Assembly: GCA_949282215.1 (NCBI GenBank)
Contig: CASDPF010000016.1
Location: forward strand, 1 to 37,658
Direction of reading: 5' to 3'
From: an uncultured bacterium
Lineage (GTDB): Bacteria; Cyanobacteriota; Vampirovibrionia; Gastranaerophilales; Gastranaerophilaceae
DNA: 37,658 nucleotides
Shown in pieces: positions 9,461-25,923 of the stretch (positions within the stretch are counted from its first letter, which is position 1; every line of letters begins with the position of its first letter). The position numbers and the translations under genes were made by a program. The notes beneath the pieces were generated by a model. The model was not told the DNA's origin. It saw only the letters and a list, made by a program, of their open reading frames with translations, and did no database searches.

Positions 9461-11080
9461 ATGATTGATCAGGCAGGAAACATTTCATATAAAGTATCAC
9501 CATTTTATAACTTTTCTCAATCAGGAAGAGAAAAGAATTATTATGTTGAAAAGAAATATGTACCACGAGAAGATAAGAAGAGCAGCAATAAAGTCATTGT
9601 AACCCTTGCTACAAGTGCATTAGCACTCGGCTTTGGTATTTTAGCGATAATGGGAGCACCTAAGGGTACAAACAAACTACTTAATAAAATTAAAAATATA
9701 TTAGAAAAGAAAATTGCTAAAACAAAAACTTCAAAAGCCGGAGAAAACGTAAACCAGTTTTATTTATCTTCCTTGAATAAGGTGAATTCATTTATTGAAA
9801 AAAGTGAAAGTATAAACAATTTCACATCAATAAAAGATGCACTATGCAAAAAACTTATGGAAAAAAGAAACTGGAGCAAAAAAATATACGAAAAAATAAC
9901 AAAACTTTTTGAAAAGACAAGCAGAGAAACAGTCGTTGCATCATGGCAGAATACAAAACATAAAATAAGTAAAACCTTTACAAGTATGGAAAAAATAGAT
10001 AAAGAAATACTTGCAGCAAAAGGTGATAAAGATATCACCATAAACGGAATTACCCAAAAAGGCAAAGAATGGTTAGAAATAATTAAAAACAATCGCAAAG
10101 ATATCGCTGAAATATTAGAAACAAACACAAGCAAAGGAAAATCAGTTGCTAGATATAAAAAAATAAAAGCCGCTACAGAACATCTTGATGATGTAACAAT
10201 AGAAATATTTAAGGATTGGAGAAACCGCAAATTATATCAAACCTTTGCCGCAGACAGAGTTATCCTAAAAGATAAAACTGCCCTTTTTGATGAATTAATG
10301 ACTTTTAGAAAACAAATAAGCTACACGAGAGAAGATAAACTAAATCTTGTTAAAAATATCGTTAAGAAAATTGAAAACTACACTGCAACTAGTAATTACA
10401 GTATTTTACAACAATTTAATAAATTAAAAAGTGATCTTAACATTAAAGCCGGTATAGATGACAAAACATTATTAAATGAGCTGGAAAACTTACAAAAAGC
10501 ACTAAAAGAGGGAAAAGTAAAAATTGACGCAGAAAATCACGTATATGAAATGATTGCAAAATCCAAAAATATAATCGCAGGAAAAGAAACAAAAGCCTAT
10601 GGAGAAATTTCGGCCAAAATACCTGAAGGGAAACTGGATGAGATTCTAAAAATATACAAGTCTCTTATACCTGAAAAATATTCTAAAATCGAAAAAATGT
10701 CAGCAAATGCGATTAAAGCAATTGATAATTCGATAAATATAGAATCTGAACAATTCTTTGACAAAGTAAGAGATTTACAAATAGGTTCAGCTCCAACTGA
10801 CGCATTGTCAATTCTAGGCTCAGCTGCAATGATTGGAGTAGGATTAGTAAAAGCAAAAGATAACGATGAAAGAGTATCTGTAACATTAAAAGCCGGAATT
10901 CCTGTATTAGGAGCAGTTGCTACCTCGTTATACTGCACAGCGAGACTCATTTCCGGAGGAAAAGCTATGGCTGTAGGTTTGCTTTCCGGTTACATTCTAA
11001 ATAAAATCGGTGAGAAAACAGATGATATAAGAAAAAAATATATAAACTTAAAATCTGAATCTAATGCAAATGCACTATAG
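9461..11080 (+). CDS. Unknown 539-residue membrane-associated helical protein
   Basis: Not recognised. The ATG at 9461 follows GCAGG at a short distance. The N-terminus (about 40 residues) is polar and aromatic and includes YNFSQSG at 16-22, a weak version of the Ser-Phe motif seen in other proteins here. A hydrophobic segment (VTLATSALALGFGILAIMG) lies at about 47-65. The middle, about 80-430, is Lys/Glu/Ile-rich and predicted mainly helical. Near the C-terminus there are three hydrophobic stretches: ALSILGSAAMIGVGL, AGIPVLGAVATSLYC and AMAVGLLSGYIL. It resembles a membrane scaffold with a large helical domain; no catalytic motif was seen. It lies 65 bases after lpxB, with a TATACT box at 9441 but no clear -35. 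Confidence 0.75.
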   Translation: MIDQAGNISYKVSPFYNFSQSGREKNYYVEKKYVPREDKKSSNKVIVTLATSALALGFGILAIMGAPKGTNKLLNKIKNILEKKIAKTKTSKAGENVNQFYLSSLNKVNSFIEKSESINNFTSIKDALCKKLMEKRNWSKKIYEKITKLFEKTSRETVVASWQNTKHKISKTFTSMEKIDKEILAAKGDKDITINGITQKGKEWLEIIKNNRKDIAEILETNTSKGKSVARYKKIKAATEHLDDVTIEIFKDWRNRKLYQTFAADRVILKDKTALFDELMTFRKQISYTREDKLNLVKNIVKKIENYTATSNYSILQQFNKLKSDLNIKAGIDDKTLLNELENLQKALKEGKVKIDAENHVYEMIAKSKNIIAGKETKAYGEISAKIPEGKLDEILKIYKSLIPEKYSKIEKMSANAIKAIDNSINIESEQFFDKVRDLQIGSAPTDALSILGSAAMIGVGLVKAKDNDERVSVTLKAGIPVLGAVATSLYCTARLISGGKAMAVGLLSGYILNKIGEKTDDIRKKYINLKSESNANAL

Positions 11081-11096
11081 GAACCTGAATATTATT

Positions 11097-11105
11097 TGTT
11101 ATAAT
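11097..11105 (+). promoter_or_regulatory. Extended -10 promoter of dgt
   Basis: TGTTATAAT matches the extended -10 form TGnTATAAT exactly; there is no good -35. The start should lie near 11112, leaving a short leader with an AAAGGA site. CCTGA (11084-11088) and TCAGG (11105-11109) form a 5-base inverted repeat around the box, which could be an operator. Confidence 0.6.
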
Positions 11106-11127
11106 CAGGCTGAAAGGATATTATCGA

Positions 11128-12162
11128 ATGACCAGACTTGATGAAATAAATGCAATACGAAATAAATTAGAAGAAAAAGAGATTAATACATTAAGTGAAT
11201 TTGCTACAAAAAGCCGTTTTTCAAAAGGAAGAAAAGAACCTGAAGAAGAAAGTGCAATAAGAACCTGCTTTCAACGAGACAGGGATAGAATAGTTCACTC
11301 TAAAGCATTTAGAAGACTAAAACATAAAACCCAAGTCTTTTTATCACCATTCGATGACCATTTCAGAACAAGACTTACACATACTTTAGAAGTATCGCAA
11401 ATAGCAAGAACAATAGCAAGAGCATTAGATTTAAATGAAGATTTAACAGAAGCTATTTCATTAGGTCACGATTTAGGACATACACCATTCGGACACTGCG
11501 GAGAAGGAGTCTTGAATGAAATTGTAAAAGGCGGATTTCATCATAATATTCAAAGCGTAAGGGTAGTAGAAATCCTTGAACATTTGAACTTATGTCGAGA
11601 AACGATTGACGGGATTTTAACACACACGTGGGGCTATACACCACTCACACCGGAAGCACAGACCGTACAATTGGCAGATAAAATTGCTTATATAAATCAC
11701 GATATAGAAGACTCAATAAGAGCCGGAATAATTTCAGAAAGTGATTTACCCAAAGACTGCATAGAATACTTTTCATCAAAACAAACCCAAAGACTAAATA
11801 AGATGATAATGGAAATAATCACAAATTCTTATGGCAAACCAACAGTATCAATGAGCGAAGAAGGCTGGCACTATACAACAAAACTTCGTGAATGGATGTT
11901 TGACAACGTATATATTGATTCACCGGCAAAACTCGAAGAAAAAAAAGCTCGCAGAGTTATAAAAGAATTATTTTTACTATACACAGAAATGCTAAAACCA
12001 ATTTGCGAAGAGAGTAAAATTGAACGCATTGTAACAGATTATATTTCAGGAATGACGGATCGATATGCTATCGAAAAATTTAAAGAACATTTCATCCCAA
12101 TAGGCTTAAATAGAGGTGCTAAAGATGAATATCTGTTTAAACTTGCAAACATTTATAAATAA
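11128..12162 (+). CDS. dgt: dGTP triphosphohydrolase family protein (Dgt)
   Basis: 344 residues, the size of the shorter bacterial dNTPases of the HD superfamily. Metal-binding HD elements are visible: H85 in RLTHTLEVSQIAR, H114-D115 in GHDLGHTPFGH and a later Asp in QLADKIAYINHDIED. The N-terminal FQRDRDRIVHSKAFRRLKHKTQV segment region (about 48-70) is typical of the family, and FSPF/FDDHFRTRLTH leads into the first His. These enzymes cut dNTPs to the deoxynucleoside and triphosphate, which tunes dNTP pools; many can also help in phage resistance. The ATG at 11128 follows AAAGGA. Substrate preference cannot be read from sequence. Confidence 0.93.
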   Translation: MTRLDEINAIRNKLEEKEINTLSEFATKSRFSKGRKEPEEESAIRTCFQRDRDRIVHSKAFRRLKHKTQVFLSPFDDHFRTRLTHTLEVSQIARTIARALDLNEDLTEAISLGHDLGHTPFGHCGEGVLNEIVKGGFHHNIQSVRVVEILEHLNLCRETIDGILTHTWGYTPLTPEAQTVQLADKIAYINHDIEDSIRAGIISESDLPKDCIEYFSSKQTQRLNKMIMEIITNSYGKPTVSMSEEGWHYTTKLREWMFDNVYIDSPAKLEEKKARRVIKELFLLYTEMLKPICEESKIERIVTDYISGMTDRYAIEKFKEHFIPIGLNRGAKDEYLFKLANIYK

Positions 12163-12191
12163 AATCACCAAGTAACAAAGATAGAAATTTC

Positions 12192-12220
12192 TTGCGTAAT
12201 AGAAAAAAATGGATTATAAT
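12192..12220 (+). promoter_or_regulatory. Promoter of the WecG/TagA gene
   Basis: TTGCGT (12192-12197) and a perfect TATAAT (12215-12220) are 17 bases apart. The -10 ends only 6 bases before the ATG at 12227, so the predicted transcription start coincides with the start codon and no Shine-Dalgarno is present. Confidence 0.72.
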
Positions 12221-12226
12221 TGAAAT

Positions 12227-12931
12227 ATGGAAAGAAAAAGAGTTAAATTACAAGGGTTTGAAATCGATTCATTCACCTTAGAGGAAGCTTTGGTTTATAT
12301 TGAAAAAGGACAAGTTGTAACTATTAATCCTGAGATGATTCAGAATGCTTCTAAAAATAAAGATTTTGCAACTATAATAAACAATGCGGAACTTGTTATT
12401 CCTGATGGGATAGGAATAGAGATAGGGTTAAAAATTCTTGGTAATAACGTAAAACGTATTGCAGGGATTGAATTTGGCAGAAAACTTATTGATAAATATG
12501 CAGGCTACCCGACAGCCTTTATCGGTGCAAAACCTGAAATTATAACTAAAGCAGTCGAAAATTTAAAAAAAGAAGTGCCTGCACTTAATGCTGTATATGT
12601 ACAAGATGGATATTTTAAAAATGATGATGCTATATTAAATTCTTTAAAAGACTCCAATCCAAAACTTGCATTAATAGCATTAGGCTCCCCAAAGCAAGAA
12701 CTATTTATATCCAAGGCAAAACAACTTCTTCCTGAGACTGTATTTATAGGACTTGGTGGAAGTTTTGACGTATGGTCAGGAGTAGTAGAAAGAGCTCCTG
12801 AAATTTATCAAAAAATGGGATTAGAATGGCTATATAGAACAATAAAAGAACCTAAAAGGTTAAAAAGGATATTTCCGACACTCCCATTGTTTGTATTAAA
12901 AGTATTAAAAGAAAGAGTTACAGGAGTCTAG
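12227..12931 (+). CDS. WecG/TagA/CpsF family glycosyltransferase (GT26)
   Basis: 234 residues, the normal size for GT26. Conserved elements are TINPEMI near 32-38, the PDGIGI loop (about 64-69) that carries the likely catalytic Asp, IGAKPE near 98-103, LIALGSPKQE (about 149-158) and GLGGSFDVWSG (about 175-185), followed by the basic amphipathic C-terminus (EWLYRTIKEPKRLKR) that docks to the membrane. GT26 enzymes add ManNAc or ManNAcA, or other sugars, to a lipid-linked acceptor for teichoic acid, ECA or exopolysaccharide synthesis. The acceptor here is not known. The predicted mRNA is leaderless. The transketolase gene begins 3 bases after its stop, so the two are an operon. Confidence 0.9.
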   Translation: MERKRVKLQGFEIDSFTLEEALVYIEKGQVVTINPEMIQNASKNKDFATIINNAELVIPDGIGIEIGLKILGNNVKRIAGIEFGRKLIDKYAGYPTAFIGAKPEIITKAVENLKKEVPALNAVYVQDGYFKNDDAILNSLKDSNPKLALIALGSPKQELFISKAKQLLPETVFIGLGGSFDVWSGVVERAPEIYQKMGLEWLYRTIKEPKRLKRIFPTLPLFVLKVLKERVTGV

Positions 12932-12934
12932 TTG

Positions 12935-13759
12935 ATGCTAAAAGATACTGAAATAAATGAATTAAAAGAGCTTTGCAAAGAAAGCCGACAAAATATAATA
13001 AAAATGGTTCATAATGCACAATCCGGTCATATAGGCGGGGCATTATCATCTACTGAAATTATGACAGTTCTGTTCCATAAATGTATGCAAACAGCTCCAA
13101 AATGGAAAAAAGATAAGAATTATGATAGACGAGACCGATTTGTACTTTCTAAAGGACATGCTTCTGCAATATATTATTCAGTGCTTTCACAACTCGGATA
13201 TTTTCCTAAAAAAGACTTAATGACATTCAGACTATTCGGGAGTCTATTGCAAGGGCATCCGGCACCTTTTTGTCCCGGAGTAGAAGTTGCAACAGGTTCT
13301 TTAGGGCAAGGGCTTTCTATCGCTTGTGGTATCGCTTTAGCTTTAAAACTTGACAAAAATCCTGCCAATGTATTTGTACTTATGGGAGATGGCGAACTTC
13401 AAGAAGGAAGCGTCTGGGAAGGGTTTATGAATGCACCTGAAAGGAATCTGAATAATCTAATCGTAATAATTGACAGAAACCGACTCCAAATTGACGGATA
13501 TACTGAAAACATAAAAGCGTTAGACCCTCTTGATAAAAAATTAAATGCTTTTAATTGGAAAGTTATTGAAATAGACGGACATGATATGAATGCAATATAT
13601 AATGCAATAGAAACCGCCAAAATCTCGGATAAGCCAACCGCTATTATTGCAAATACAATTAAAGGTAAAGGCGTAAGCTTTATGGAAAATAATGCAGGGT
13701 GGCATGGTAAAGCTACCAATAATGAAGAATTTGAAAAAGCTATGAAAGAGTTAGAATAA
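12935..13759 (+). CDS. Transketolase, N-terminal (TPP-binding) subunit
   Basis: The ATG at 12935 has AGGAG 8 bases upstream, which favours it over the TTG at 12932; the product is 274 residues. It is the N-terminal half of transketolase: HIGGALSSTE (about 32-41), LSKGHASA (71-78), GSLGQGLSIACG (about 121-132) and the TPP motif GDGELQEGSVWE ending in N (about 151-175). Split transketolases need a separate C-terminal subunit with the pyrimidine-binding and C-terminal domains, and that gene normally follows directly. Here the next gene is a YhcH-family protein instead, so the partner must be elsewhere or the subunit has been repurposed. A sugar-modification role with the upstream glycosyltransferase is possible but unproven. 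Confidence 0.9.
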   Translation: MLKDTEINELKELCKESRQNIIKMVHNAQSGHIGGALSSTEIMTVLFHKCMQTAPKWKKDKNYDRRDRFVLSKGHASAIYYSVLSQLGYFPKKDLMTFRLFGSLLQGHPAPFCPGVEVATGSLGQGLSIACGIALALKLDKNPANVFVLMGDGELQEGSVWEGFMNAPERNLNNLIVIIDRNRLQIDGYTENIKALDPLDKKLNAFNWKVIEIDGHDMNAIYNAIETAKISDKPTAIIANTIKGKGVSFMENNAGWHGKATNNEEFEKAMKELE

Positions 13760-14205
13760 TGATTTTTGATAAACTTGAAAATTTAAGACAATATGATATC
13801 GTTTCAGATAAGATTTTAGAATTTTTATTTAACATTGATGAAAACACTCCAAATGGTCGTTATGAAATTGATGAAACTTCTTATGCAAATATTGAAGAAT
13901 ATAACACAAAAGCACCTGAAATATGTTATTTTGAAGCACATCAAAAATATATTGATATACAAATGCTTTTAAAAGGTGAAGAAAGACTGGATTTCCGTTC
14001 TATTAACGGTTTAACTGAAAAAGAAGAATATAATGAAGAACGGGATATCATTTTCTTTAACGAACAAGATTCGGCAGGCAGTATAAAGCTTTCTGACAGT
14101 TATTTTGCACTTTTATTGCCACATGACGCACACAGACCGCAAATGAACATCAATAATCATTCACAAAGTGTTAAAAAAGTCGTTGTCAAAGTATCTGTTA
14201 ATTAA
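13759..14205 (+). CDS. YhcH/YjgK/YiaL (DUF386) family protein
   Basis: 148 residues, full length for the family. Signatures are the FEAHQKYIDIQ motif (about 54-64), typical ExHxxxxDIQ, and LLPHDAHRPQM near the C-terminus (about 119-129), which supply the metal-binding His/Glu residues of this cupin-like fold. Relatives include EbgC and NanQ and act as sugar anomerases or accessory enzymes in sialic acid and galactoside metabolism. The ATG overlaps the transketolase stop by one base (TAATG), so translation is coupled. Its 3' end overlaps the convergent gene on the minus strand by 8 bases. The actual sugar is not known. Confidence 0.88.
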   Translation: MIFDKLENLRQYDIVSDKILEFLFNIDENTPNGRYEIDETSYANIEEYNTKAPEICYFEAHQKYIDIQMLLKGEERLDFRSINGLTEKEEYNEERDIIFFNEQDSAGSIKLSDSYFALLLPHDAHRPQMNINNHSQSVKKVVVKVSVN

Positions 14206-15241
14206 AGAATTTATCTTTAAACTTTGAAACATCGGGTGTTGTAATTTTATCCAATCCGGGACCAACATATTTGTGCATAATTACATTTTCAACAAAAGTA
14301 TCAATTGGTTTAATTAATATGCCTAATGCAATAAAACCACCAATTGTCTTTGCCATTTTTGTTTTAAAGATTTTTTGTTCTTCAAATTTTTTCAAAATAT
14401 CTTTAGCAGCATGATGGGCATAATTGTTAGAATATTTCTTATCATTTTTATATGTTTCTTTGAGTAATAAAAACTTCTTAAACATTTTTTCACTCATATC
14501 CTTAGGCTTATTTCCTTCAAGAAGTTCTTTACGCATTGCAAACATATTATCTATTCGTTTATCTATAAAATCGTGTATTTTTTGACGTCTGTCTTTTCCC
14601 ATAGCTTCAGGATGACGGTGCCCAAAACAAAAATTACCAAGAATTTTAATAGGATTTCTATATTTATATTTTCTCATTGTCTCATCAATCATATTATCAA
14701 GAGCCTGAGTATATTTTTGTTTATATAAAGGAACATCGTTTTCAAACTCACTAAGTCTACGTTGAGACATATAATTCAGATGATTACGAACGACTTCTTC
14801 TTTAGACTGCAAAGACAATCCTTCTTTAGAACCTCTAGCTAAAATTGAAGCAGTTTTTTGTCCTGCATGTACCGCCGCAATAGGGAATAAAACACTTGCA
14901 AAAGCTTGGAAAATTGCTTGTTTTAAGCCACGTTTTGTACTAGGATCATAATTTTCTTTATTATTTCTGTATTTATCATAAATATCGGCACCAAAATACA
15001 TTAAAGCCGGAACCCACATAGCCATACCAGCTTTCGGAGCAATATCCGTAATCGCAGCACCAATATCATTTGTAAATGCCATACCTCTAATAGGCCATTG
15101 CATAAGAGGATCAGAATACTTCCGTTTCGGCTTATTTTCATTTGATTTTTCAAACTCAGGCTCATTGCCTTGAGGTTTAATATTAGAATTATGGGCGGTA
15201 AAACTTGTTTTATTTAATGATATTGGGGCAATTCTATACAA
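14198..15241 (-). CDS. Unknown membrane protein with N-terminal Ser-Phe motif
   Basis: Not recognised. It starts at a TTG (15241) with AGGAGA about 9 bases upstream; 347 residues. The N-terminus carries TSFTAHNSN (12-20), followed by a polar Lys/Glu/Asn stretch to about 45. Hydrophobic segments are seen at about 88-102 (MAMWVPALMYFGADI), 131-147 (IFQAFASVLFPIAAVHA) and 307-325 (IGGFIALGILIKP). Between the last two lies a basic helical region rich in Arg/Lys with FCFGHRHPEAMGKDRR. No enzyme motif is seen. The leader upstream is about 100 bases or more. With the 9461-11080 protein it shares the plan of polar N-terminus, membrane segments and long helical domain. Confidence 0.78.
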   Translation of the reverse strand: MYRIAPISLNKTSFTAHNSNIKPQGNEPEFEKSNENKPKRKYSDPLMQWPIRGMAFTNDIGAAITDIAPKAGMAMWVPALMYFGADIYDKYRNNKENYDPSTKRGLKQAIFQAFASVLFPIAAVHAGQKTASILARGSKEGLSLQSKEEVVRNHLNYMSQRRLSEFENDVPLYKQKYTQALDNMIDETMRKYKYRNPIKILGNFCFGHRHPEAMGKDRRQKIHDFIDKRIDNMFAMRKELLEGNKPKDMSEKMFKKFLLLKETYKNDKKYSNNYAHHAAKDILKKFEEQKIFKTKMAKTIGGFIALGILIKPIDTFVENVIMHKYVGPGLDKITTPDVSKFKDKFFN

Positions 15242-15369
15242 TATTCAATTTCTCCTACCAACTATTAAGTAATTCAAACCCCAAGCACAATGGCATGGGA
15301 CGCATTTACTATTATAAAACAAGTAAAAAAAATTTTTGCACATTTTTAAGTAAATTATTGTAAATTTTA

Positions 15370-15378
15370 TGATATTAT
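15370..15378 (+). promoter_or_regulatory. Extended -10 promoter of the gph-like gene
   Basis: TGATATTAT fits the extended -10 pattern TGnTATTAT. Six bases separate it from the ATG at 15385, so the predicted start is the first codon; there is no Shine-Dalgarno and no clear -35. Confidence 0.5.
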
Positions 15379-15384
15379 CGAGTT

Positions 15385-16047
15385 ATGATAGATACAGTAA
15401 TATTTGACTTAGACGGAACATTATTAAATACACTGGAAGATTTAAAAGATAGCACAAACTTTGCTTTGAGAAAATTTAATTATCCGGAAAGGACAGTTGA
15501 AGAAGTCAGAAATTTTGTCGGAAACGGAGTACAAAAGCTTATAGAACGTGCTATTCCAAATGGTCTGGAAAATAAAGATTATGCAGAATGCCTAAAATTA
15601 TTCAAAAACCATTATGCACAAAACATGTATAATAAAACCGCACCATATCCAGGTATAAAAGAAATGTTGGAAGAATTAAAACTAAAAGGAATAAAAACCG
15701 CAGTTGTTTCTAATAAGTTTGATTTAGCAGTAAAAGAATTATGCAGTAAATATTTTGGGAATCTGATTGAAATAGCGATTGGGGAATCTGAAAATGTAAG
15801 AAAAAAACCGGCTCCTGATAGTGTTTTGAGAGCGATCAAAGAATTGAATTCTAAAAAAGAATTTTGTATATATTCAGGAGACTCGGACGTAGACGTACAG
15901 ACAGCAAGAAATACAGGGATAGACTGCATAGGAGTCACTTGGGGATTTAGAGACAGAGCATTACTTGAACAAGAGGGAGCTAAATACATTATAAATAAAC
16001 CATTTGAGCTTATTGAAACAATTAATAAAATAAACTCTTGTAATTAA
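15385..16047 (+). CDS. gph: HAD-family phosphatase, phosphoglycolate phosphatase-like
   Basis: 220 residues, the standard size of Gph. HAD motif I is FDLDGTLLNT (7-16, nucleophile Asp8 and general acid Asp10), the helical cap follows (about 17-85), motif II is VVSNK (about 107-111), motif III is the Lys in KKPAPD (about 138-143), and motif IV is SGDSDVDV (about 169-176). The C-terminal IGVTWGFR is typical of phosphoglycolate phosphatase and PpaX-type enzymes. It removes phosphate from 2-phosphoglycolate or a similar small substrate in the cytoplasm. The ATG lies 6 bases after an extended -10 with no ribosome-binding site, so a leaderless mRNA is likely. The symbol is a best fit; substrate is not certain. 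Confidence 0.85.
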   Translation: MIDTVIFDLDGTLLNTLEDLKDSTNFALRKFNYPERTVEEVRNFVGNGVQKLIERAIPNGLENKDYAECLKLFKNHYAQNMYNKTAPYPGIKEMLEELKLKGIKTAVVSNKFDLAVKELCSKYFGNLIEIAIGESENVRKKPAPDSVLRAIKELNSKKEFCIYSGDSDVDVQTARNTGIDCIGVTWGFRDRALLEQEGAKYIINKPFELIETINKINSCN

Positions 16048-16080
16048 AAGTTTTAAGACTACAATAATAAAAGTAAAGCC

Positions 16081-16101
16081 AAGACAAATTTGTTGTCTTT
16101 T
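16081..16101 (+). terminator. Weak terminator hairpin after the gph-like gene
   Basis: AAGACAA (16081-16087) pairs with TTGTCTT (16093-16099) around ATTTG, with only a short T run after it. It lies 34 bases after the stop codon and may end the transcript. Confidence 0.4.
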
Positions 16102-16107
16102 CGGAAA

Positions 16108-16137
16108 ATGACAATTTAGCTTTTTAGAATGTAGTAT
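16108..16137 (+). promoter_or_regulatory. Possible promoter for tRNA-Pro or a small RNA
   Basis: ATGACA (16108-16113) and TAGTAT (16132-16137) are 18 bases apart. The match is moderate, but it is the best candidate upstream of the hairpin-rich region and tRNA-Pro. Confidence 0.35.
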
Positions 16138-16321
16138 AAACCTAGTTCAGCAGCAAAAATGATTAATGATTATTTCTCAAATGAACTAAGGAGAATGATA
16201 CATGATAAAATGAATAAAATCGTAATGTAGCAATGACTACAAATTTGATTTATTATCAAACTTGGCTGGACTTAGGTAGTGACGCTACCAAGAAAACTAA
16301 ATGACAAATGAATATTTTTAT
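16138..16321 (+). ncRNA. Candidate structured RNA or tRNA leader
   Basis: This gene-free stretch has three consecutive hairpins: TGTAG/CTACA (16226-16230 with 16237-16241), a perfect 6-base TTTGAT/ATCAAA (16244-16249 with 16255-16260), and CTT-A-GGTAG/CTACC-AAG (16271-16279 with 16285-16292). CTTGG (16261-16265) can also pair with CCAAG (16288-16292), giving an alternative fold to the third hairpin. Very short frames such as the 6-codon frame at 16211 are too small to support as genes. It may be the 5' leader of tRNA-Pro or an independent small RNA; no known RNA family was recognised. Confidence 0.3.
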
Positions 16322-16395
16322 CGGAATGTAGCGCAGCTTGGTAGCGCACCGTGTTCGGGACGCGGGGGTCGCAGGTTCAAATCCTGTCATTCCGA
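16322..16395 (+). tRNA. tRNA-Pro (anticodon CGG)
   Basis: A complete cloverleaf: acceptor CGGAATG pairs perfectly with CATTCCG, D stem GCGC/GCGC, anticodon stem CCGTG/CGCGG around the loop TTCGGGA (anticodon CGG, reading CCG), T stem GCAGG/CCTGT with loop TTCAAAT, discriminator A at 16395. C1-G72 is the bacterial tRNA-Pro identity pair. CCA is not encoded. It lies about 300 bases before the three-gene MBL cassette. Confidence 0.96.
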
Positions 16396-16691
16396 TTTTT
16401 GTATTTTAATTAAGAAAATAAATGTAAATAAACTAAATTATTACAATCTTTTGTTTAACTCATGAAAATGTCTATATTTTTTTAAGGACTTGAATAATAT
16501 AATAAAAAAGTAATAATAGAAATAGTAGTACAATTGATTGATGTGAAAAAATAACGACATATTATAATAAATGTTAAAATAAATATTAATTTCTTGAATT
16601 GCAAACATGACTGTAATACCATGAGTTTGTAGTTTAGGGATTATTTTAAATATTTTAATAGTCGGACTTTCATCATAATAGAAGGTTTAAT
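16396..16691. other. Gene-free AT-rich spacer before the MBL cassette
   Basis: About 296 bases with no supportable ORF, no second copy of the tRNA-Pro 3' end, and no strong promoter. AGAAGG at about 16679-16684 is the ribosome-binding site of the first cassette gene. Confidence 0.6.
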
Positions 16692-18981: not shown

Positions 18982-20382
18982 TTATTGTAACTCTTTTACT
19001 AATAATGATTTTAAATTTTCAATTTTATCCAAGCTGTTGCTTTCAAAATAAATTCTCAACAAAGGTTCTGTACCGCTTGGTCTTACTAAAATCCAACTAT
19101 TATCATCATTAAGATATAATTTGACGCCATCTTTTGTATCTATATGCTTTACTTGGTATCCACCTACTGATTTATATAATTTGCATTTTTCAAGAACAGG
19201 TTTTACATCATCCTGTTTTTCAAGTTTTAGGTCAACCCTGTCATTATAAAAGTGAACACCTGCCAAAGAATAAAGTTTTTCCTGCAATTCACAAAGTGAA
19301 AGATTGTAGTATGCCATTGCTTCAAGGATTAATAAATTAGCAAGAATGCCGTCTTTTTCAGGAATATGCCCCTGAATACTCAGACCACCGCTTTCTTCTC
19401 CTGCAATTATCGGGTTATATTTACGCATTGCCTCCCCAACATGTTTAAACCCGACAGGAGTTTCTATTACCTCTACACCCACTTTCTCTGCAACTTTATC
19501 TAAAAGAAGACTTGCTCCTACGGTTTTTACAAGACAACCTTTGTAATTTTTATTTTCTTTTAAATGCATTAATAAAACAGCAATAATCTCATTAGGAGAA
19601 ACATATTCTCCTTTTTCATTAATTACTCCAAACCTGTCGCCATCGCCATCATTTGCCATTCCAACTGCACAATCGGAGTTCTTAATTAACTCTATCAAAT
19701 CACTCATAAACTTCGGTTTAGGCTCAGGCATTCCGCCCCCGAAATTTACATCATGCTCCATGTGCAATGACTTGTATGGTATTTTTACAAACTTCTCCAA
19801 CAATTCTGAAAAATACTCAATAGTTGCTGAGTATAAACCGTCAAATATAACTTTCTCGTGTTCGTTTAGGATAAAATCATGAATTTTCTCAAAATCAATT
19901 AATGATTGAATATGCTTATAATATTCATTTCTAAAATCAGTTTTTATAATCTTACCATCTGCAAACTTTTCAACTGATACCCCTATAAAAGAAACTATTT
20001 TATCCGTAATATCGCTTGTAGCAGGACCTGCATAATCCGGAATAAATTTTATGCCAAGATACTCAGGCGGATTATGGGAAGCTGTAAACATAAGTGCACA
20101 AGCATTCAATTCTTTTGCATTATAAGCAAGGATAGGTGTCGGTATAATTTTTTCACTATATAGAACTTGAAACCCAAGTTCAGACAAAATTTTTGCACTC
20201 TGCATAGAAAAAGTATCTGCCATATTTCTAGGGTCATACCCTATTATAAATTTTTTATCAGAACCAAAAGTTTCATAAACATACTTTCCTATAGCATTAG
20301 TTACTAAAGATACGTTTTCAGCATTAAACTCTTTACCTACAATCGCTCTCCAGCCATCTGTTCCAAATTTTATATCCGTCAT
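18982..20382 (-). CDS. Phosphoglucomutase/phosphomannomutase
   Basis: 466 residues, full length for the alpha-D-phosphohexomutase family. All four signatures are present: the phosphoserine loop TASHNP (100-105, Ser102), the metal loop DGDGDR (245-250), the sugar-binding GEESGG (328-333) and the phosphate-binding RPSGTEP (434-440). It converts hexose 1-phosphate to 6-phosphate, supplying glucose-1-P or mannose-1-P for polysaccharide and glycogen metabolism. The sugar-binding loop GEESGG suits PGM and PMM/PGM enzymes better than GlmM, but the choice cannot be settled by eye. The ATG at 20382 has GGAAGGA upstream. It stands alone on the minus strand, downstream-facing the MBL cassette. Confidence 0.93.
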   Translation of the reverse strand: MTDIKFGTDGWRAIVGKEFNAENVSLVTNAIGKYVYETFGSDKKFIIGYDPRNMADTFSMQSAKILSELGFQVLYSEKIIPTPILAYNAKELNACALMFTASHNPPEYLGIKFIPDYAGPATSDITDKIVSFIGVSVEKFADGKIIKTDFRNEYYKHIQSLIDFEKIHDFILNEHEKVIFDGLYSATIEYFSELLEKFVKIPYKSLHMEHDVNFGGGMPEPKPKFMSDLIELIKNSDCAVGMANDGDGDRFGVINEKGEYVSPNEIIAVLLMHLKENKNYKGCLVKTVGASLLLDKVAEKVGVEVIETPVGFKHVGEAMRKYNPIIAGEESGGLSIQGHIPEKDGILANLLILEAMAYYNLSLCELQEKLYSLAGVHFYNDRVDLKLEKQDDVKPVLEKCKLYKSVGGYQVKHIDTKDGVKLYLNDDNSWILVRPSGTEPLLRIYFESNSLDKIENLKSLLVKELQ

Positions 20383-20441
20383 AAAACCATCCTTCCACTA
20401 CCAAGAATAGTAAAAAAAAAGTTACAAGTAAAGAAAATCTA

Positions 20442-20470
20442 TTGCGAAACTTGCATTTAAATCATATTAT
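20442..20470 (+). promoter_or_regulatory. Promoter of the secreted-protein/lipoprotein pair
   Basis: TTGCGA (20442-20447) and TATTAT (20465-20470) are 17 bases apart. An alternative pair, TTGCAT and TAAATA, overlaps it 8-10 bases downstream. Either gives a short leader. Confidence 0.5.
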
Positions 20471-20497
20471 TTATAAATAAAGAGGGTTATTTAAGTG

Positions 20498-21196
20498 ATG
20501 ATTAAAAAAGTGATATCGACCGTTCTGATAGCGTTAATGCTATCCAATCCGTTGGTCTATGCAGCAGAAAACCTGCCAAATATTAAAACAGAAGTAACGA
20601 AACTGAAACTTTCAGAAGCAGATCTGGACAAAAGTGCTGACCAAGAGAATAAGAAAAAGCAATATAAATATAAAACAGTTCTGAAACGCTATATTCCTTA
20701 TGAAGCAAAAATAACAAACAATAATAAAATTCCTGTTTTACTCAACACAAATACAGACATAGACTTACTTCTTGAAGACGGTTCTTACATAAAGTCAGAC
20801 ACAAGAAGAGATATCTATAAACTAACCCGAAAAAAAGATATAGGACGTTACTATGGGATTGCAATCCCCGGAGCTATAGTTGCAGGAGTAGTGACTGTAA
20901 TCACATTATTTATAGGCACACCTCTTGGAGCATTAATTGCTGTAGGAACAATGGAACCCACAAACAAAGCTGTAAGAGGAAATGTTGATATAGCTCAAGA
21001 ATTATACAAATATAAAGATCTGCCAATTAGACTTGACGCAGGAAAAAGTTATAGCGTCAATTTTTATATACCTAAAAATGAATATATCTCGGCAATTAGG
21101 ATTAATAACCTAAACTTGGAAAACAATAAAACAAATTACAAGCTTATAATTCCGCTTGATACTCAGGAGGTTAAAGATATTGAAGAAGATATTTAA
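20498..21196 (+). CDS. Unknown exported protein with hydrophobic hairpin
   Basis: Not recognised. A GTG (20495) and an ATG (20498) are both usable after AGAGGG; the ATG gives 232 residues and the GTG has better spacing. A signal peptide ends near VYAA (about residue 22). The mature part starts with a Lys-rich segment, then beta-like strands (RYIPYEAKITNNNKIPVLL). A long hydrophobic stretch (about 127-154, YYGIAIPGAIVAGVVTVITLFIGTPLGALI, read in two parts) could be a TM hairpin, and a C-terminal beta domain follows. The protein may sit in the inner or outer membrane facing the periplasm. Its 3' end contains the AGGAGG site of the following lipoprotein gene. Confidence 0.75.
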   Translation: MIKKVISTVLIALMLSNPLVYAAENLPNIKTEVTKLKLSEADLDKSADQENKKKQYKYKTVLKRYIPYEAKITNNNKIPVLLNTNTDIDLLLEDGSYIKSDTRRDIYKLTRKKDIGRYYGIAIPGAIVAGVVTVITLFIGTPLGALIAVGTMEPTNKAVRGNVDIAQELYKYKDLPIRLDAGKSYSVNFYIPKNEYISAIRINNLNLENNKTNYKLIIPLDTQEVKDIEEDI

Positions 21197-21641
21197 CAGT
21201 TTATTAATCGGTTTGGTAGGGATTTTTACCTGCGGATGCAATCAGTATTTTATATCTGATAATACGGAAGATATGCAAATAAAAGATATATACTACGGAG
21301 CCTATAACAGAAGAGATTTTACTTGGGCTGATGTCGTACTTTACAAAAAAGACAGTGATAAAAAGTGTGAAGGGGTAATCCATCTGAATGCCCCTTCAAG
21401 ATCCATTACAATCAAAAATGACAGAGTTGATGCAATTATGAAACTAGCCTGCAATGACGGAACTCTTATGAGCATTGATTGGGAGTTAAAGAAAAAAGCT
21501 TTTGCGGACGGCTTTGGAAAAGGAGTAGACCAATATAATAATTTCTATAGCTTTAAAACAGTATCTAAAGACGAATTCAACACCGTTGCCCAAGATAAAG
21601 AAATTCAAATTCCAAATAAAGAATTTTTATTAAAATATTAA
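21180..21641 (+). CDS. Probable lipoprotein, unknown function
   Basis: The frame is open from a TTG at 21156, but a TTG at 21180 has a perfect AGGAGG nine bases upstream and begins a lipoprotein-like signal (MKKIFNSLLIGLVGIF then TCGC). That start gives 153 residues. The likely lipidated Cys is the second of the Cys-Gly-Cys pair, at about residue 20. The rest has an aromatic N-terminal part and several beta strands; no domain was recognised. The start lies 17 bases inside the upstream gene, so translation is probably coupled and the two proteins may form a complex. The stop is 3 bases from the end of the convergent kinase-like gene. Confidence 0.72.
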   Translation: MKKIFNSLLIGLVGIFTCGCNQYFISDNTEDMQIKDIYYGAYNRRDFTWADVVLYKKDSDKKCEGVIHLNAPSRSITIKNDRVDAIMKLACNDGTLMSIDWELKKKAFADGFGKGVDQYNNFYSFKTVSKDEFNTVAQDKEIQIPNKEFLLKY

Positions 21642-21644
21642 TTC

Positions 21645-22529
21645 TTACGAATAAAGTAATATACTTTTAAAATATACTTCTTTTACAACATTTAAAATTT
21701 TATGTATAAAATTCTTATAAGCAACCCTATCAGCTTCTCCAGAAAGGATTATATCCGCATTTTCAAGAGTAGGATGAATATGAATTTTAGCCTTATTAGA
21801 AGCATTCATATAAACTTCATCAACAGAAGCTCCCAAATTTCTTTCAGCAGCTCGTCTGTAAAATCTTTCTTTTTGCACCTCAGCAGAAACATCAACATAA
21901 ATTTTAAAATCAAATGCATCAACAACTTTTTCAGTTAAAGTAAATAACCCCTCTGAAATTATTATTTTAGAAGGAACAGCAAGAGTTACATTATCTTTTC
22001 TGATTGCAGTTCCTGACATATCATATTTTGGAAGATACACATTTTTACCGTTCAACAGCTCTTTAATATGTTCTTTCATTAATGAAAGTTCCAATGCCTC
22101 AGGCACATCAAGATCATAATGTTTTGCAAACTCAGCAAAACTGCCTGCTTTTTTTACCATATCAGACCTGTCATAATAATAGTCATCAGTATTTATTCTT
22201 GTTATCAAGTCCTTGATACAATATTCTTGAGCAAATGCTTCCAAGGTATTTATTATATCATAAGCAATCGTTGACTTACCGCTTGCGGTCTCACCTGCTA
22301 TCCCTATTGAACAGGAACGATTTTTACAGCCTGATAAAAACAACGCAATTCTATGTATAACTCTATTGGATACATAACAAAAAATTGAATCCGGAGATTC
22401 AATCTCTTCCTGAAATATATTATTCAACCTTTTTTCAATATAAAAAATAAGATTATTTTCGTCATTTCCCAAACATTTGAAAGACGTTTTTTGTCTTGTT
22501 GAAAAGGTGTTTGTTATAGTATTTTGCAA
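21645..22529 (-). CDS. Uridine kinase/PRK-like P-loop kinase
   Basis: 294 residues from a TTG (22529) with AAAGGA upstream. The Walker A loop is GETASGKS (79-86). Residues INTDDYYYD (about 105-113), PEALEL and LPKYDMSG, together with ISEGLF and the RRAAERN arginine segment, match the uridine kinase/phosphoribulokinase family, whose members phosphorylate nucleosides or sugars with ATP. Ordinary uridine kinases are about 210 residues; this one has an extra N-terminal segment of roughly 70, with TSFKCLGN at 15-22. That segment is the Ser-Phe motif shared with other proteins here. The kinase family is firm, the substrate uncertain. Confidence 0.82.
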   Translation of the reverse strand: MQNTITNTFSTRQKTSFKCLGNDENNLIFYIEKRLNNIFQEEIESPDSIFCYVSNRVIHRIALFLSGCKNRSCSIGIAGETASGKSTIAYDIINTLEAFAQEYCIKDLITRINTDDYYYDRSDMVKKAGSFAEFAKHYDLDVPEALELSLMKEHIKELLNGKNVYLPKYDMSGTAIRKDNVTLAVPSKIIISEGLFTLTEKVVDAFDFKIYVDVSAEVQKERFYRRAAERNLGASVDEVYMNASNKAKIHIHPTLENADIILSGEADRVAYKNFIHKILNVVKEVYFKSILLYS

Positions 22530-22554
22530 TTTATAAATCCTTTTATTATTGCTA

Positions 22555-22594
22555 AGCTTGTTTTAGCTTTACTTCAATAAACCACAAACAAGCT
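22555..22594. repeat. Inverted repeat upstream of the kinase-like gene
   Basis: AGCTTGTT (22555-22562) and AACAAGCT (22587-22594) are perfect inverted copies 24 bases apart, lying in the divergent spacer 26 bases upstream of the TTG at 22529. Within the left half, GCTAA/TTAGC can form a smaller hairpin. It could be an operator or a leader structure. Confidence 0.5.
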
Positions 22595-22697
22595 CAAAAT
22601 TGTCAAAATTTTTACAAAATGTTCAAATTTCTTTACACCAAATTTTTTATTAGCAAAAATTTTTTATTTCATATTTTATAAAATCATCGGGAGTTAT

Positions 22698-23282
22698 ATG
22701 AATATACAGAGATTAACATACAAACCGCTAATTCAAAATTCTCAAAAAATAAGAACCTCACATTCAGTAAAAAAGTTTTTTAATTTTTTCCAAATATATG
22801 GCAAAGGCAGAAAAGAACTCTTTTTGAATTTGAGAGCTATTGTAGATACCTGTTCATCCATCTCTAACGGATGCGGACTGAGAATTGCAGAAGATAGCAA
22901 AGGCAACATTCTTGCAGGATACACATACAAAATAAGAAAAAACAGGCGTGAAGAACGCAGTATGTATATCGACGGACTCGCCAGAAATTTATCTGACTCG
23001 AAAAAAGATGTATCCAAAAACTTAATGACTGAAATATATGAAGACATGAAAAAAACAGCCATTAAGAAAAAAGTTAAAGAAATTACGCTATTTGTACATG
23101 CAGGAGAAGACGGACTAAAAAATAATTACAAAAGACTGGGATTTAAAGAAGACCATCGTTGTAATATTGAAAAAGTATATTTAATGAGAGTTCGTCTGGA
23201 AGATTTTCTTAATAATACATATTTTAAATGCAGAAAATTTAAAGAACTGATGAATTTGAAAAGTTTTATTATAAAGCCCTAA
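22698..23282 (+). CDS. GNAT-like acetyltransferase family protein
   Basis: 194 residues with the GNAT plan. Strand RIAEDSKGNILAGYTYKI (about 54-71) is followed by YIDGLARN, the position of the family VxxLxVxP strand, then a helix KNLMTEIYEDMKKTA (about 101-115) and the strand EITLFVHA. The ending NNYKRLGFKED (about 137-147) is the typical GNAT xxYxxxGF motif. The acetyl-CoA loop RxxGxG/A is not obvious between YIDGLARN and the helix, so activity is uncertain. The N-terminus is basic (MNIQRLTYKPLIQ) without the Ser-Phe motif. The ATG has GGGAG upstream. It converges on the repeat-protein gene 22 bases away. Confidence 0.7.
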   Translation: MNIQRLTYKPLIQNSQKIRTSHSVKKFFNFFQIYGKGRKELFLNLRAIVDTCSSISNGCGLRIAEDSKGNILAGYTYKIRKNRREERSMYIDGLARNLSDSKKDVSKNLMTEIYEDMKKTAIKKKVKEITLFVHAGEDGLKNNYKRLGFKEDHRCNIEKVYLMRVRLEDFLNNTYFKCRKFKELMNLKSFIIKP

Positions 23283-23304
23283 AATTAAAACTTATTTATT
23301 CAGC

Positions 23305-25059
23305 TTATTTTGCAAAAAATCCCGAAATTTTACTTTGAATTTCTTTTAATACATCATTTAAGCCCTGCATATCATTTTCAGCATTTTTCATAGCTGCAGT
23401 AAGCATTTTATTGCACTCTTGCATTAAAGCTTTATATTCTTTACTTGAAGAATAAAGTTTATTATTTTCTTTTTTAGTCTGTTTTTTTTCAATCAATTCT
23501 GTTTTTTTAGACTTTATAATTTGTCTTGGCTGATTTATATATTTATGAAACTCCTGAATTTCTTCTTTAGCTTTTTTTACCAATGGTTCTATATTCAATT
23601 CTTTAAGTTCAACATCACTGTAATATCTAAGCACAGGAGGAAGCATTGTCGGATAAGAAGGATTGAAATTTTTAACAACCATATCCTTATCTACCAATAC
23701 ATACTCGCTATTACCGTTTTTTGACACACATATACGAATCAGGTTACTATCTCCGGAATTATTCATTTTCAAAACAGAAATTTTTTCCCCGTCGTCGTTT
23801 TTAAAAATAAAACCTCTTTGTCCGCCTATTGCCCCCCATTTCGGATAAGAAGTTTTTAAATCCGATATAGCATGAGAATTTAGATTAGAAAAATTATCTG
23901 TAATAGCTCTATATGCATTATCAATAACTTCAATATCAGAAGCAATAAGGCCATCCAGCCTACCAGTTACCGGACCAATAGCTTTTTGATATAAACTATT
24001 TGCAATATACTTATCAAAATCTTCAAGTTTTTTTTGATAATCTGAAGTTAATTTTTCAAACCTTGGTAAAACTTCTTTGACGGATAATTCATCATAAAAA
24101 AGTAATTTAGGTGGTATTATACTAAAATTTTTCGAATTAAAATTTGAAACGAGTTGGTTATCTTTTATCAAAAAGCCATCTTGAATTTCATCATTTTTAT
24201 CTAAGACCATAATCCTCGTAAGTTTACCATGTTCAGGATGCTCAAACTGTTTATATAAAACCTGATTTTGTTCATCTCCAATATTTTTTAAAATATGAGT
24301 AGGTTGTTTCGCTTGAAGCTTATAATCGTTGAAATCTATTTTTAATTTCAAAGCAGTTTTGCGAGAAAACGATTTTAAAACTTCATCTATATGATTATAT
24401 AAAAATTCAATGTCTTTCATTCGATTAACTGTATCTGAATTAAAATTAAAAGTATTAGGTTTTAAATACATTCCATCAAACTTGTTTAAAAACTGCCTGA
24501 ATTTAAGCATTGCAAAATCTAAATCATCTAATATATTCTTTAAATTTTCCTCAACCGGTTTATCAAAAGTTAAAACATTTGCATTAGCAGGAAATACGAA
24601 TACACTATTTTTATTAGTATCCTCAAGAAGTTGTTCAGAATTTTTTACAGTAAACGAATCCAAAACAAATTTTTCATCCCATAGACTACTGCCTCTACGA
24701 ACAACAACTTTTATTAAATTTCGCCCGTCTTTGCCATCAGGCACTCTCACTAAAATTGTTTTATTTTTATCGCCACAATTATGAAAAGTAAACCCTCGAC
24801 CAGATTTAAAATTTTTATATTGTTTTTCAATAATTTCAAGACCTTCAGGACTTTTCTCAGAAATCTTTGCTAAAATATCATTATACGCATTTGCAATAGA
24901 AGATATTGATAATGCAGTATCTCTGGTTAACCGTTCTAAATTAGCGGTAAAAGCAAAACTATCATTGGATTTTTTTACGTTATAACGGTTTTGAACAAAA
25001 TAATTATTATTAACAGGTTTATTGGAGGATCTATAATTATTTAGATAAGTAATTTTCAT
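23305..25059 (-). CDS. Unknown protein with three diverged internal repeats
   Basis: Not recognised. 584 residues, soluble. The N-terminal 40 residues are Asn/Tyr/Lys-rich and end in SFAFTAN (34-40), the Ser-Phe motif. Three copies of a domain of about 150 residues follow, at about 50-190, 212-352 and 375-508. Each has a helix, a GFxF-like strand (GRGFTFHN in copy 1, RGFIFKN in copy 3), a strand resembling NLIKVVV/LTRIMVL/NLIRICV, then a FVLDSFTVKN/FLIKDNQLV/YVLVDKDMV strand, then a PP(K/V)LxxY-type turn and a helix ending in KFRQFL/DFDKYI/EFHKYI. The last 70 residues are a charged coiled coil. No Shine-Dalgarno is seen before the ATG. Role unknown. Confidence 0.78.
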   Translation of the reverse strand: MKITYLNNYRSSNKPVNNNYFVQNRYNVKKSNDSFAFTANLERLTRDTALSISSIANAYNDILAKISEKSPEGLEIIEKQYKNFKSGRGFTFHNCGDKNKTILVRVPDGKDGRNLIKVVVRRGSSLWDEKFVLDSFTVKNSEQLLEDTNKNSVFVFPANANVLTFDKPVEENLKNILDDLDFAMLKFRQFLNKFDGMYLKPNTFNFNSDTVNRMKDIEFLYNHIDEVLKSFSRKTALKLKIDFNDYKLQAKQPTHILKNIGDEQNQVLYKQFEHPEHGKLTRIMVLDKNDEIQDGFLIKDNQLVSNFNSKNFSIIPPKLLFYDELSVKEVLPRFEKLTSDYQKKLEDFDKYIANSLYQKAIGPVTGRLDGLIASDIEVIDNAYRAITDNFSNLNSHAISDLKTSYPKWGAIGGQRGFIFKNDDGEKISVLKMNNSGDSNLIRICVSKNGNSEYVLVDKDMVVKNFNPSYPTMLPPVLRYYSDVELKELNIEPLVKKAKEEIQEFHKYINQPRQIIKSKKTELIEKKQTKKENNKLYSSSKEYKALMQECNKMLTAAMKNAENDMQGLNDVLKEIQSKISGFFAK

Positions 25060-25160
25060 ATAAAGTATAAAACCGGTAAATAAAATTTTTGCCCTAAAAA
25101 TCTTAAATAAAACTATTATAACTTATTGCCAAAATACGAAACATATATTACATACTAGTA

Positions 25161-25886
25161 TTATTTAATCATTTTATTATAAAGCCTCAAAAACCAAGGC
25201 TCGGAATTTTCATCCAATCTTTTATCCATGAAAGTGATATACTCAGGAAAATCCCCGCGAAATTTATTTATTTTATCAATTACAGCTCTTTCAGGTTTAT
25301 TATTATAATCCATTATTCTATAACCGTTTTTTAATTGAAAAGGAACAGCCATATTATCAGAAGCCAGAAAAACATCAGTATATATGCCTTTGGAACAAGC
25401 AATTGCTTTATCCATAAGTATTGTAGCCACATGATTTTTTCTATAGTCTTTTCTCACTGCAACAGAATCTACATAACAAGTTTTATTATCAAACAAGCCT
25501 GAAATATCTTTAAAAGTATTAGTAACAACCGCTCCACACAATTCACCTACAGAGTTTCTGGCTTCTAACACACTAAGATTATCATCATTATCAATAAACA
25601 TTTGTTTATAGTAATTTTTAATTCTATCTAACATAGAAATATATTTATTATAATTTTTTGGATCTTTATATTGAATAAGGGAAGGATCCTTCGTATTATT
25701 TATAAAGTTATCAGCAAAAAACTTCGTAATTTCTTTTAGGTTTCTCTCATCTGCAATATCATTATCTGTAAGTTCTTTTACAAATAATGCACCCTTTTTT
25801 GTCATAATCCGAAAATGCGGGATTGGATTATTTTTGGAACAAAAATTTATAGAATACTTATCATTTGATACTTTATTTACTAACAA
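25161..25886 (-). CDS. GNAT family N-acetyltransferase
   Basis: A GTG at 25895 and a TTG at 25886 are both in frame; the AAGGTGAG site overlaps the GTG and is well placed for the TTG, which gives 241 residues. Residues about 105-200 (GTG numbering) form a GNAT domain: strand GELCGAVVTN, strand TCYVDSVAVRKDY, then the acetyl-CoA loop RKNHVA, a variant of RxxGxG/A with His for the first Gly, then helix TILMDKAI. VFLASDNMAVPFQLKNGYRI gives the final Nx4AxxxYxxxGF-like element. The N-terminus contains SINFCSKNN (15-23), a variant of the Ser-Phe motif. It is the last gene before tRNA-Leu; the target of acetylation is unknown. Confidence 0.78.
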   Translation of the reverse strand: MLVNKVSNDKYSINFCSKNNPIPHFRIMTKKGALFVKELTDNDIADERNLKEITKFFADNFINNTKDPSLIQYKDPKNYNKYISMLDRIKNYYKQMFIDNDDNLSVLEARNSVGELCGAVVTNTFKDISGLFDNKTCYVDSVAVRKDYRKNHVATILMDKAIACSKGIYTDVFLASDNMAVPFQLKNGYRIMDYNNKPERAVIDKINKFRGDFPEYITFMDKRLDENSEPWFLRLYNKMIK

Positions 25887-25923
25887 GATTCTCACCTTTT
25901 ATAGATTATTTAGAATAATACAT

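What the first reader, a model, noticed from the sequence alone, without database searches (positions are those of the whole stretch)
9461..25895. A shared N-terminal Ser/Asn-Phe motif on unrelated proteins
Seen: five proteins carry a short motif near the N-terminus: TSFTAHN (residues 12-18, gene 14198-15241), TSFKCLGN (15-22, kinase-like 21645-22529), SFAFTAN (34-40, gene 23305-25059), INFCSKN (16-22, GNAT 25161-25886, GTG numbering) and, more weakly, YNFSQSG (16-22, gene 9461-11080). Their downstream domains are unrelated (kinase, acetyltransferase, repeat protein, membrane proteins). In the kinase it sits in an extra N-terminal segment that ordinary uridine kinases lack. Inferred: a sorting, secretion or partner-binding tag. 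If confirmed genome-wide this would be a new targeting signal.
Basis: partly seen in the sequence, partly recalled or inferred. Interest (0 to 1): 0.72.

Follow-up and report, generated by a model that had tools for sequence, protein, structure and literature searches.

The report
N-terminal tag in gut Gastranaerophilales proteins
About one in fifty proteins of this uncultured gut bacterium starts with the same short, floppy two-part tag in front of otherwise unrelated domains; the tag recurs in several relatives and looks like an unrecognised address label whose reader is not yet known.

Summary
The window comes from a Candidatus Gastranaerophilales genome. It is enriched at N-termini over internal segments and shuffles in the home genome, in a genome of another family, and in 80 loci fetched after the pattern was fixed (20 of 482 protein families; reversed N-termini 6). 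Of the five proteins named, two keep the tag in relatives while the linker diverges, the GNAT keeps the second box in one distant relative, the kinase does not keep it, and 9461-11080 could not be tested. Codons vary, so selection is on protein. Best reading: an N-terminal targeting signal. Type III-like export through a flagellum-derived apparatus (FlhA2, present in all 21 flagellin-less genomes examined) is the likeliest route but only inferred; intracellular docking is nearly as good. Against: three Gastranaerophilales genomes (G018, G048, G028) and three other genomes of the phylum with two full-length FlhA proteins show no enrichment, in small samples.

The parts
15188..15241 (-). Tag of gene 14198-15241 (residues 1-18, MYRIAPISLNKTSFTAHN; TTG start with AGGAG upstream)
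   Evidence: residues 1-40 below pLDDT 50 (24-row alignment)
14198..15241 (-). Gene carrying the tag; helical protein, Pfam only a below-cut-off MTP18 hit; matches in 24 of 39 genomes, home included
24940..25059 (-). Tag of gene 23305-25059: first box residues 1-7 (25059-25039), second box residues 34-40 (24960-24940)
   Evidence: 4 of 4 homologues have an aliphatic residue 3 and a second box by eye, linker unalignable; residues 1-43 below pLDDT 50 (5-row alignment)
23305..25059 (-). Gene carrying the tag, 584 aa, no Pfam family over cut-off
25830..25895 (-). Tag of the GNAT gene 25161-25895 (residues 1-22, second box SINFCSKN)
   Evidence: homologue L327 has IAFGSKNCPIP against own INFCSKNNPIP; the GTG start is uncertain, no strong ribosome site
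22464..22487 (-). TSFKCLGN of the kinase-like protein 21645-22529 (residues 15-22); probably not a tag
   Evidence: homologues have QLFSN or NSFLQ there
9506..9526 (+). YNFSQSG of gene 9461-11080 (residues 16-22); weak, first box poor, untested
22698..22718 (+). First-box-like start MNIQRLT of gene 22698-23282, without a second box
   Evidence: not tested further

Best explanation
Shown: a two-part N-terminal tag sits on roughly 2% of the sampled proteins of this Gastranaerophilales genome and on proteins of several relatives, in front of unrelated domains, and is under selection as protein sequence. Inferred: it is a targeting signal read at or near the free N-terminus. Likeliest mechanism, inferred only: it works like a type III secretion signal, handing proteins that lack Sec signals to a flagellum-derived export apparatus (FliE-FliF-FliH-FlhA2, with FliN-like, FliO, P, Q, R proteins attributed to it by inference) that is kept in genomes without flagellin. 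Confidence: tag real 0.9; N-terminal targeting of some kind about 0.7; the type III route in particular 0.35. The figure in the confidence field is for the statement as a whole.
For: Enrichment with held-out and later-fetched data. The two boxes associate: 32 proteins with both, 114 and 115 with one, 1357 with neither, odds ratio 3.3, p 5e-7 pooled. Of 47 proteins selected on the second box alone against 1699 controls: I/V at residue 3 in 23 against 297; aliphatic or Pro at 3 or 4 in 38 against 857; no D/E in the first 12 in 29 against 440; S+N+Q at least 20% of the first 25 in 43 against 662. The second and third of these are two of the three patterns that the abstract of PMC3338616 gives for Pseudomonas syringae type III substrates. 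FlhA2 in 36 of 39 genomes and in 21 of 21 without a flagellin match (tallied by hand by bit score); operon context. A LysM-lysozyme and an UshA-like nucleotidase, kinds usually exported elsewhere (recalled), are tagged and show no Sec signal in the home genome.
Against: No export data. The third P. syringae pattern (over 10% Ser) is weak (10 of 47 against 194 of 1699, p 0.06) and all three together are not enriched (3 of 47 against 45 of 1699, p 0.14); the same abstract reports an effector lacking all three that was still secreted. Tagged proteins include enzymes of usually cytosolic kinds (M17 aminopeptidase, GH77). FlhA2-bearing G018, G048 and G028 and three other genomes of the phylum with two full-length FlhA (G039, G054, G056) show no enrichment. 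Seven of 16 close nucleotidase homologues start at the domain without a tag. FliE and FlgB-like proteins, expected substrates, lack the second box. No FlhB or ATPase of the second apparatus was identified in the home stretches read. An F-x-G copy lies internally in the A1 family. Cys content of soluble tagged proteins (1.02%) lies between soluble (1.41%) and Sec-like (0.77%) proteins: inconclusive.
Confidence: 0.4

Rival explanations
1. Intracellular docking motif: the tag is a short linear motif that ties cytosolic enzymes and membrane proteins to a scaffold, pole or granule inside the cell, with no export.
For: The tagged set mixes metabolic enzyme folds and membrane proteins; 9 of 61 tagged proteins have a predicted membrane segment beyond residue 30; an internal F-x-G copy recurs in the A1 family; homologues without the tag keep the enzyme domain.
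Against: The motif is tied to the very start (I/V at residue 3), which a docking motif would not need; internal copies are not more frequent in tagged than in control proteins (1 in 13,317 against 26 in 453,622 residues).
Confidence: 0.3
2. Cleavable leader: a protease removes the tag after F-x-G and the cut releases or activates the domain.
For: In the nucleotidase family F-x-G directly precedes the first shared residues of the domain, and untagged homologues start there.
Against: No protease identified or searched for; in many tagged proteins no domain edge lies near the second box.
Confidence: 0.12
3. Translation-start effect: selection on the messenger near the start codon (A/T-rich codons), not on the protein.
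For: The first box is mostly written in A/T-rich codons (matched sequences).
Against: Synonymous codons vary at the second box: Ser AGT 7, TCT 7, TCA 2, AGC 2; Gly GGA 11, GGC 8, GGT 3, GGG 1; Lys is lower, not higher, than in controls (9.0 against 11.8%).
Confidence: 0.04
4. Chance: low-complexity N-termini of an A/T-rich genome produce look-alikes.
For: Background is not small (5.5-7.6 of 1004 expected); about five of the 20 hit families look like ordinary housekeeping starts by eye; at protein level reversed N-termini of the 80 loci matched 16 times against 23 forward.
Against: Counted once per family, forward exceeds reversed and shuffled 15.2 to 3.3 and 3.4; boxes persist in homologues with diverged linkers.
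Confidence: 0.08

Closest known systems
Type III secretion signals (flagellar and injectisome substrates)
   Same: Uncharged-polar N-terminus, aliphatic residue or Pro at position 3 or 4, few acids in the first 12 residues (patterns of PMC3338616, abstract); rest of the protein unrelated
   Different: Here a recognisable F-x-G box and a spaced first box; Asn and Gln raised more than Ser; no secretion evidence
Sec/Tat signal peptides and prepilin leaders
   Same: N-terminal address label
   Different: No hydrophobic core: nearly all tag matches lie in hydrophilic N-termini without being chosen for it (15.1 of 15.2 per-family draws); prepilin-type starts were removed before the main tests
Encapsulin and microcompartment cargo peptides (recalled, no call)
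   Same: Short peptide on unrelated cargo
   Different: Those mark few cargo proteins (recalled), not about 2% of the proteome; no shell gene was searched for

Membership tests
Type III secretion signal | Directs secretion through a type III apparatus | not testable with these tools
   needs an experiment
Type III secretion signal | Host genome encodes type III export-gate proteins | tested here: met
   FlhA family in 39 of 39 genomes, FlhA2 class in 36 of 39 and 21 of 21 without flagellin match; FliE, FliF, FliH with FlhA2; FliMN_C, FliO, FliP, FliQ, FliR and a separate FlhB, FliR, FliP set in the home genome. Completeness of the second apparatus not shown
Type III secretion signal | Aliphatic residue or Pro at 3 or 4; no acid in first 12; over 10% Ser in first 50 (P. 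syringae patterns, PMC3338616 abstract) | tested here: inconclusive
   first two enriched (38 and 29 of 47), third weak (10 of 47), all three together 3 of 47 against 45 of 1699
Type III secretion signal | Known substrates of the same apparatus share the signal | tested here: not met
   FliE and FlgB-like proteins lack the second box; the FliK-like protein of G034 has a look-alike that may be chance. Substrates of one apparatus need not share a motif, so this lowers the claim without deciding it
Sec signal peptide | Positive n-region and hydrophobic core | tested here: not met
   tag matches fall almost wholly in N-termini without a hydrophobic stretch

The most novel reading that the evidence does not exclude
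A new class of N-terminal protein-targeting signal, bipartite and neither Sec, Tat nor classical type III, with its own receptor, used by some 30-60 proteins per genome (extrapolated from about 2% of sampled proteins) in much of the Gastranaerophilales; the conserved soluble FlhA_C-like protein (about 495 aa, 37 of 39 genomes) is a candidate receptor.
Probability: 0.3. Interest if true: 0.85.

Novelty: new variant of a known kind. Interest (0 to 1): 0.6.

Why it matters
It would give a sequence handle on the exported or specially placed proteome of an uncultured lineage of animal-gut bacteria, and might say what their incomplete flagellar gene sets, read as possible genome reduction in one gut genome (PMC3787301, passages), are for.

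Tried and rejected
Unsupervised EM motif search on 557 N-termini returned only composition patterns. A first enrichment scan was swamped by prepilin starts, which were then removed by a pattern: 67 of 741 discovery, 30 of 359 held-out, 9 of 140 G011, 1 of 159 G018, 2 of 94 G048, 0 in G034 and G028, 22 in the 80 loci; in the 80 loci 76 members of the query family were also left out. The seven-position score matrix trained on the discovery sample worked in G034 (7 against 1.2 at score 8) but was weak in held-out home stretches and showed nothing in G011, G018, G048 and G028. The two-part pattern was written after those listings, so the fully later data are the 80 loci; one of these, L181, is from G034's genome and is given both ways; other overlaps between the 80 genomes and sampled ones were not checked.

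A whole-genome DNA pattern for a strict first box gave 99 matches in 48 genomes of the home family, against 17 for the tool's own backward control and 36 for a codon-scrambled version; in 69 other genomes 50, against 37 backward and 35 scrambled (tallied by hand; 99:36 against 50:35, one-sided Fisher p 0.019). Supportive, modest, not corrected for base composition.

Reversed N-termini in the 80 loci matched 16 of 1004; by family these are 2, 1, 3, 6, 3 and 1 homologues, so 6 families against 20; the family with six begins MKVAPVKFRQQ, itself a tag-like start that the forward pattern missed.

Internal or C-terminal copies: no enrichment in tagged proteins. Fold search of the 14198 model: no match at E 0.001 or better. 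In the alignment M1 and F37 are invariant, but for the most distant row the F set against F37 is not that of its own TQFTAQ box, so I rest on the boxes by eye. Literature: searches listed no paper on such a motif in this lineage, judged from titles and abstract starts; seen of papers: PMC3338616 abstract, PMC3787301 and PMC5877343 passages.

Eight by-eye housekeeping look-alikes were left out of one version, which reports both. Which member of the 73-protein set carries which Pfam domain was inferred from sequence except for the FliK-like one and those scanned singly.

Full report
What the window is. The ORFs, the relatives found by the genome search and the record titles of 80 loci encoding a relative of a protein family of this genome (many Candidatus Gastranaerophilales, also Adamsella, Scatousia, Gastranaerophilus, Galligastranaerophilus; some titles give only 'bacterium' and two name other groups) place the window in the Gastranaerophilales, non-photosynthetic relatives of Cyanobacteria from animal guts. 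The home genome has 2,187,131 bases in 45 contigs.

The observation. To test them beyond five examples I sampled 40 stretches of 20 kb of the home genome plus the window, called genes with a simple codon and ribosome-site script, and compared N-termini with internal segments. Among 674 proteins left after removing 67 prepilin-like ones, [IV][NS]F[TKR][GA] occurs 5 times in residues 3-35 and never in 177,327 internal residues.[NS]F[TKRSQ][GA] 19 times against 3.8 expected. The tag is thus M-x-[IV]-x-x-[IVL]-[NS], a linker of 0-25 residues, then [NSTA]-F-[TKRQSG]-[GAS]; with no linker the two fuse, as in MEISKVSFTG.

Statistics. With the two-part pattern: discovery 18 of 674 (expected 4.0 internal, 4.6 shuffled); held-out home stretches 8 of 329 (2.1, 2.5; p 4e-3); G011, same genus, 3 of 131 (0.7, 0.7; p 0.03); G034, another family of the order, 9 of 186 (1.1, 1.3; p 1e-5). 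No enrichment in G018 (1 of 158), G048 (0 of 92), G028 (0 of 48), nor in four other genomes of the phylum (G039 1 of 115, G054 0 of 99, G056 0 of 28, G050 2 of 104). The pattern was written after seeing the lists, so the later test is the 80 loci: 23 of 1004 proteins against 5.5 internal and 7.6 shuffled, p 5e-6; 22 of 987 without the locus of G034's genome, p 4e-6. By family: 20 of 482 against 6 for reversed N-termini; drawing one member per family, 15.2 against 3.3 reversed and 3.4 shuffled. At protein level the reversed control reached 16 because homologues repeat. Of the 20 families about five look like ordinary starts by eye, in line with the background.

Independence of the two boxes. 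Proteins with the first box have the second more often (pooled 32/114/115/1357, odds ratio 3.3, p 5e-7); by genome the test reaches p 0.05 in the two home sets and G034, not in G011, G018, G048 or G028. Choosing 47 proteins by the second box alone, against 1699 controls, residue 3 is I or V in 23 against 297, residues 3 and 6 both fit in 16 against 110, residue 7 is N or S in about 42% against 12%; Asn, Gln, Ser, Arg and Pro are raised, Asp and Glu halved, Lys lowered. Codons at the second box vary, so the constraint is on protein.

Homologues. The gene at 23305-25059 has four homologues in 39 genomes, at roughly 67, 37, 24-28 and 21-22% identity; all have I or L at residue 3 and a second box (own SFAFTAN; VSFTGN, FSFTGS, NSFCGK, TQFTAQ) while the residues between cannot be aligned. 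The 14198-15241 family has a tag, loosely judged by eye, in 19 of 28 homologues, often behind a TTG start. A family with matches in 106 of 117 genomes of the order keeps a second box in about 17 of 30 loci by eye, from MQINKINKSSTNFTG to MKINQISGINFKT; the home copy has lost it (MQVQKIS). The GNAT has two homologues in 39 genomes: one reads IAFGSKNCPIP where the window reads INFCSKNNPIP, the other aligns only downstream. The kinase does not keep the motif (MQNTVTKTIRPSEKQQLFSN in two loci, MQNTLVNNLTKKSNSFLQ in a third). For 9461-11080 no homologue held covers the N-terminus.

What carries it. Of 73 proteins chosen by eye and pattern (the five of the finding included), Pfam families at E 0.001 include GNAT (2 members), and one each of M17 aminopeptidase, GH77, LysM, phage lysozyme, uridine-kinase family, FliK-type, HD, metallophosphoesterase, 5'-nucleotidase C-terminal, DHH, dual-specificity phosphatase and alpha-amylase (25 of 32 families shown); from those numbers at least 40 of 73 have none. 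In the nucleotidase family nine of sixteen close homologues, home included, carry a tag that ends directly at the first shared residues, and seven start there; no Sec-like start was seen in the sixteen, whereas one distant homologue has one (by eye; two of the nine are broken or partial frames). AlphaFold models of the 14198 and 23305 proteins leave residues 1-40 and 1-43 below pLDDT 50 (mean 75.6 and 71.4, alignments of 24 and 5 rows, so low confidence there may partly reflect poor alignment); no solved fold matches the former at E 0.001.

Mechanism. A start-anchored, uncharged-polar N-terminus with an aliphatic residue at position 3 resembles type III secretion signals; two of the three P. 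syringae patterns named in the abstract of PMC3338616 are strongly enriched, the third weakly, and all three together are not. Export-gate proteins exist: the FlhA family is in 39 of 39 genomes and falls, by bit score, into three classes: FlhA1 (867-891 bits) in 18 genomes, 17 of which are among the 18 with a flagellin match; FlhA2 (685-732 bits) in 36 of 39 and in all 21 without a flagellin match, the three lacking it being 75-82% complete; and a protein, mostly of about 495 aa, with only the FlhA cytosolic part, in 37 of 39. In the home genome FliE, FliF, an unnamed protein, FliH and FlhA2 lie together. Homologues of FliF, the unnamed protein, FliH and FlhA2 lie together in five other genomes, FliE in four of them; FlgC- and FlgB-like neighbours (named by eye) occur in the two flagellated ones and an FlgB-like one in G014, so in those genomes the cluster may also serve the flagellum. 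A FliMN_C, FliO, FliP, FliQ, FliR set lies elsewhere in the home genome, apart from the FlhB, FliR, FliP set next to FlhA1; giving it to FlhA2 is inference, and no FlhB or ATPase of the second apparatus was identified in what I read. Di Rienzi and colleagues read an incomplete flagellar set in one gut genome as possible ongoing reduction (PMC3787301, passages). That this apparatus exports tagged proteins is inference: several genomes with FlhA2 show no tag enrichment, likely structural substrates lack the second box, and many tagged enzymes are of cytosolic kinds. Internal docking is nearly as good a reading.

Verdict. The tag is real, present in part of the order, and not in the literature found by the searches. 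Its function is open; an N-terminal targeting signal is the best reading, type III-like export the likeliest route at about 0.35.

Noticed in passing
L003-L042 and window: 67 of 741 sampled home-genome proteins match a prepilin-type start (such as FTLAEVLITLGIIG), a very large pseudopilin set.
   Followed up: partly
L017:15110-16585: A soluble protein of about 495 aa with the FlhA cytosolic part behind an unrelated N-terminal region, in 37 of 39 genomes; in the home genome it sits next to a GH77 enzyme with a tag-like start.
   Followed up: partly
L013:6011-8038: The home genome has the flagellar-type FlhA1 but no flagellin match, unlike the other 17 genomes with FlhA1 (possible gap, loss or contamination).
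   Followed up: no
L072:7323-9119 and L072:6462-7277: Proteins starting MGMAASQARYLGL and MAYKNDSYLVIANKFG near the FlhA2 cluster, with relatives near it in G011 and G018; possible exported structural parts.
   Followed up: no
L297-L305: The lysozyme family of these genomes has a second kind of N-terminus, MDFLT or similar followed by an amphipathic-looking stretch, in place of the tag.
   Followed up: no
window 37245-37595: Small protein MTITVGAIYSAFPNF... with a relative at 43% identity in L217; no Pfam or NCBIfam family over cut-off.
   Followed up: no
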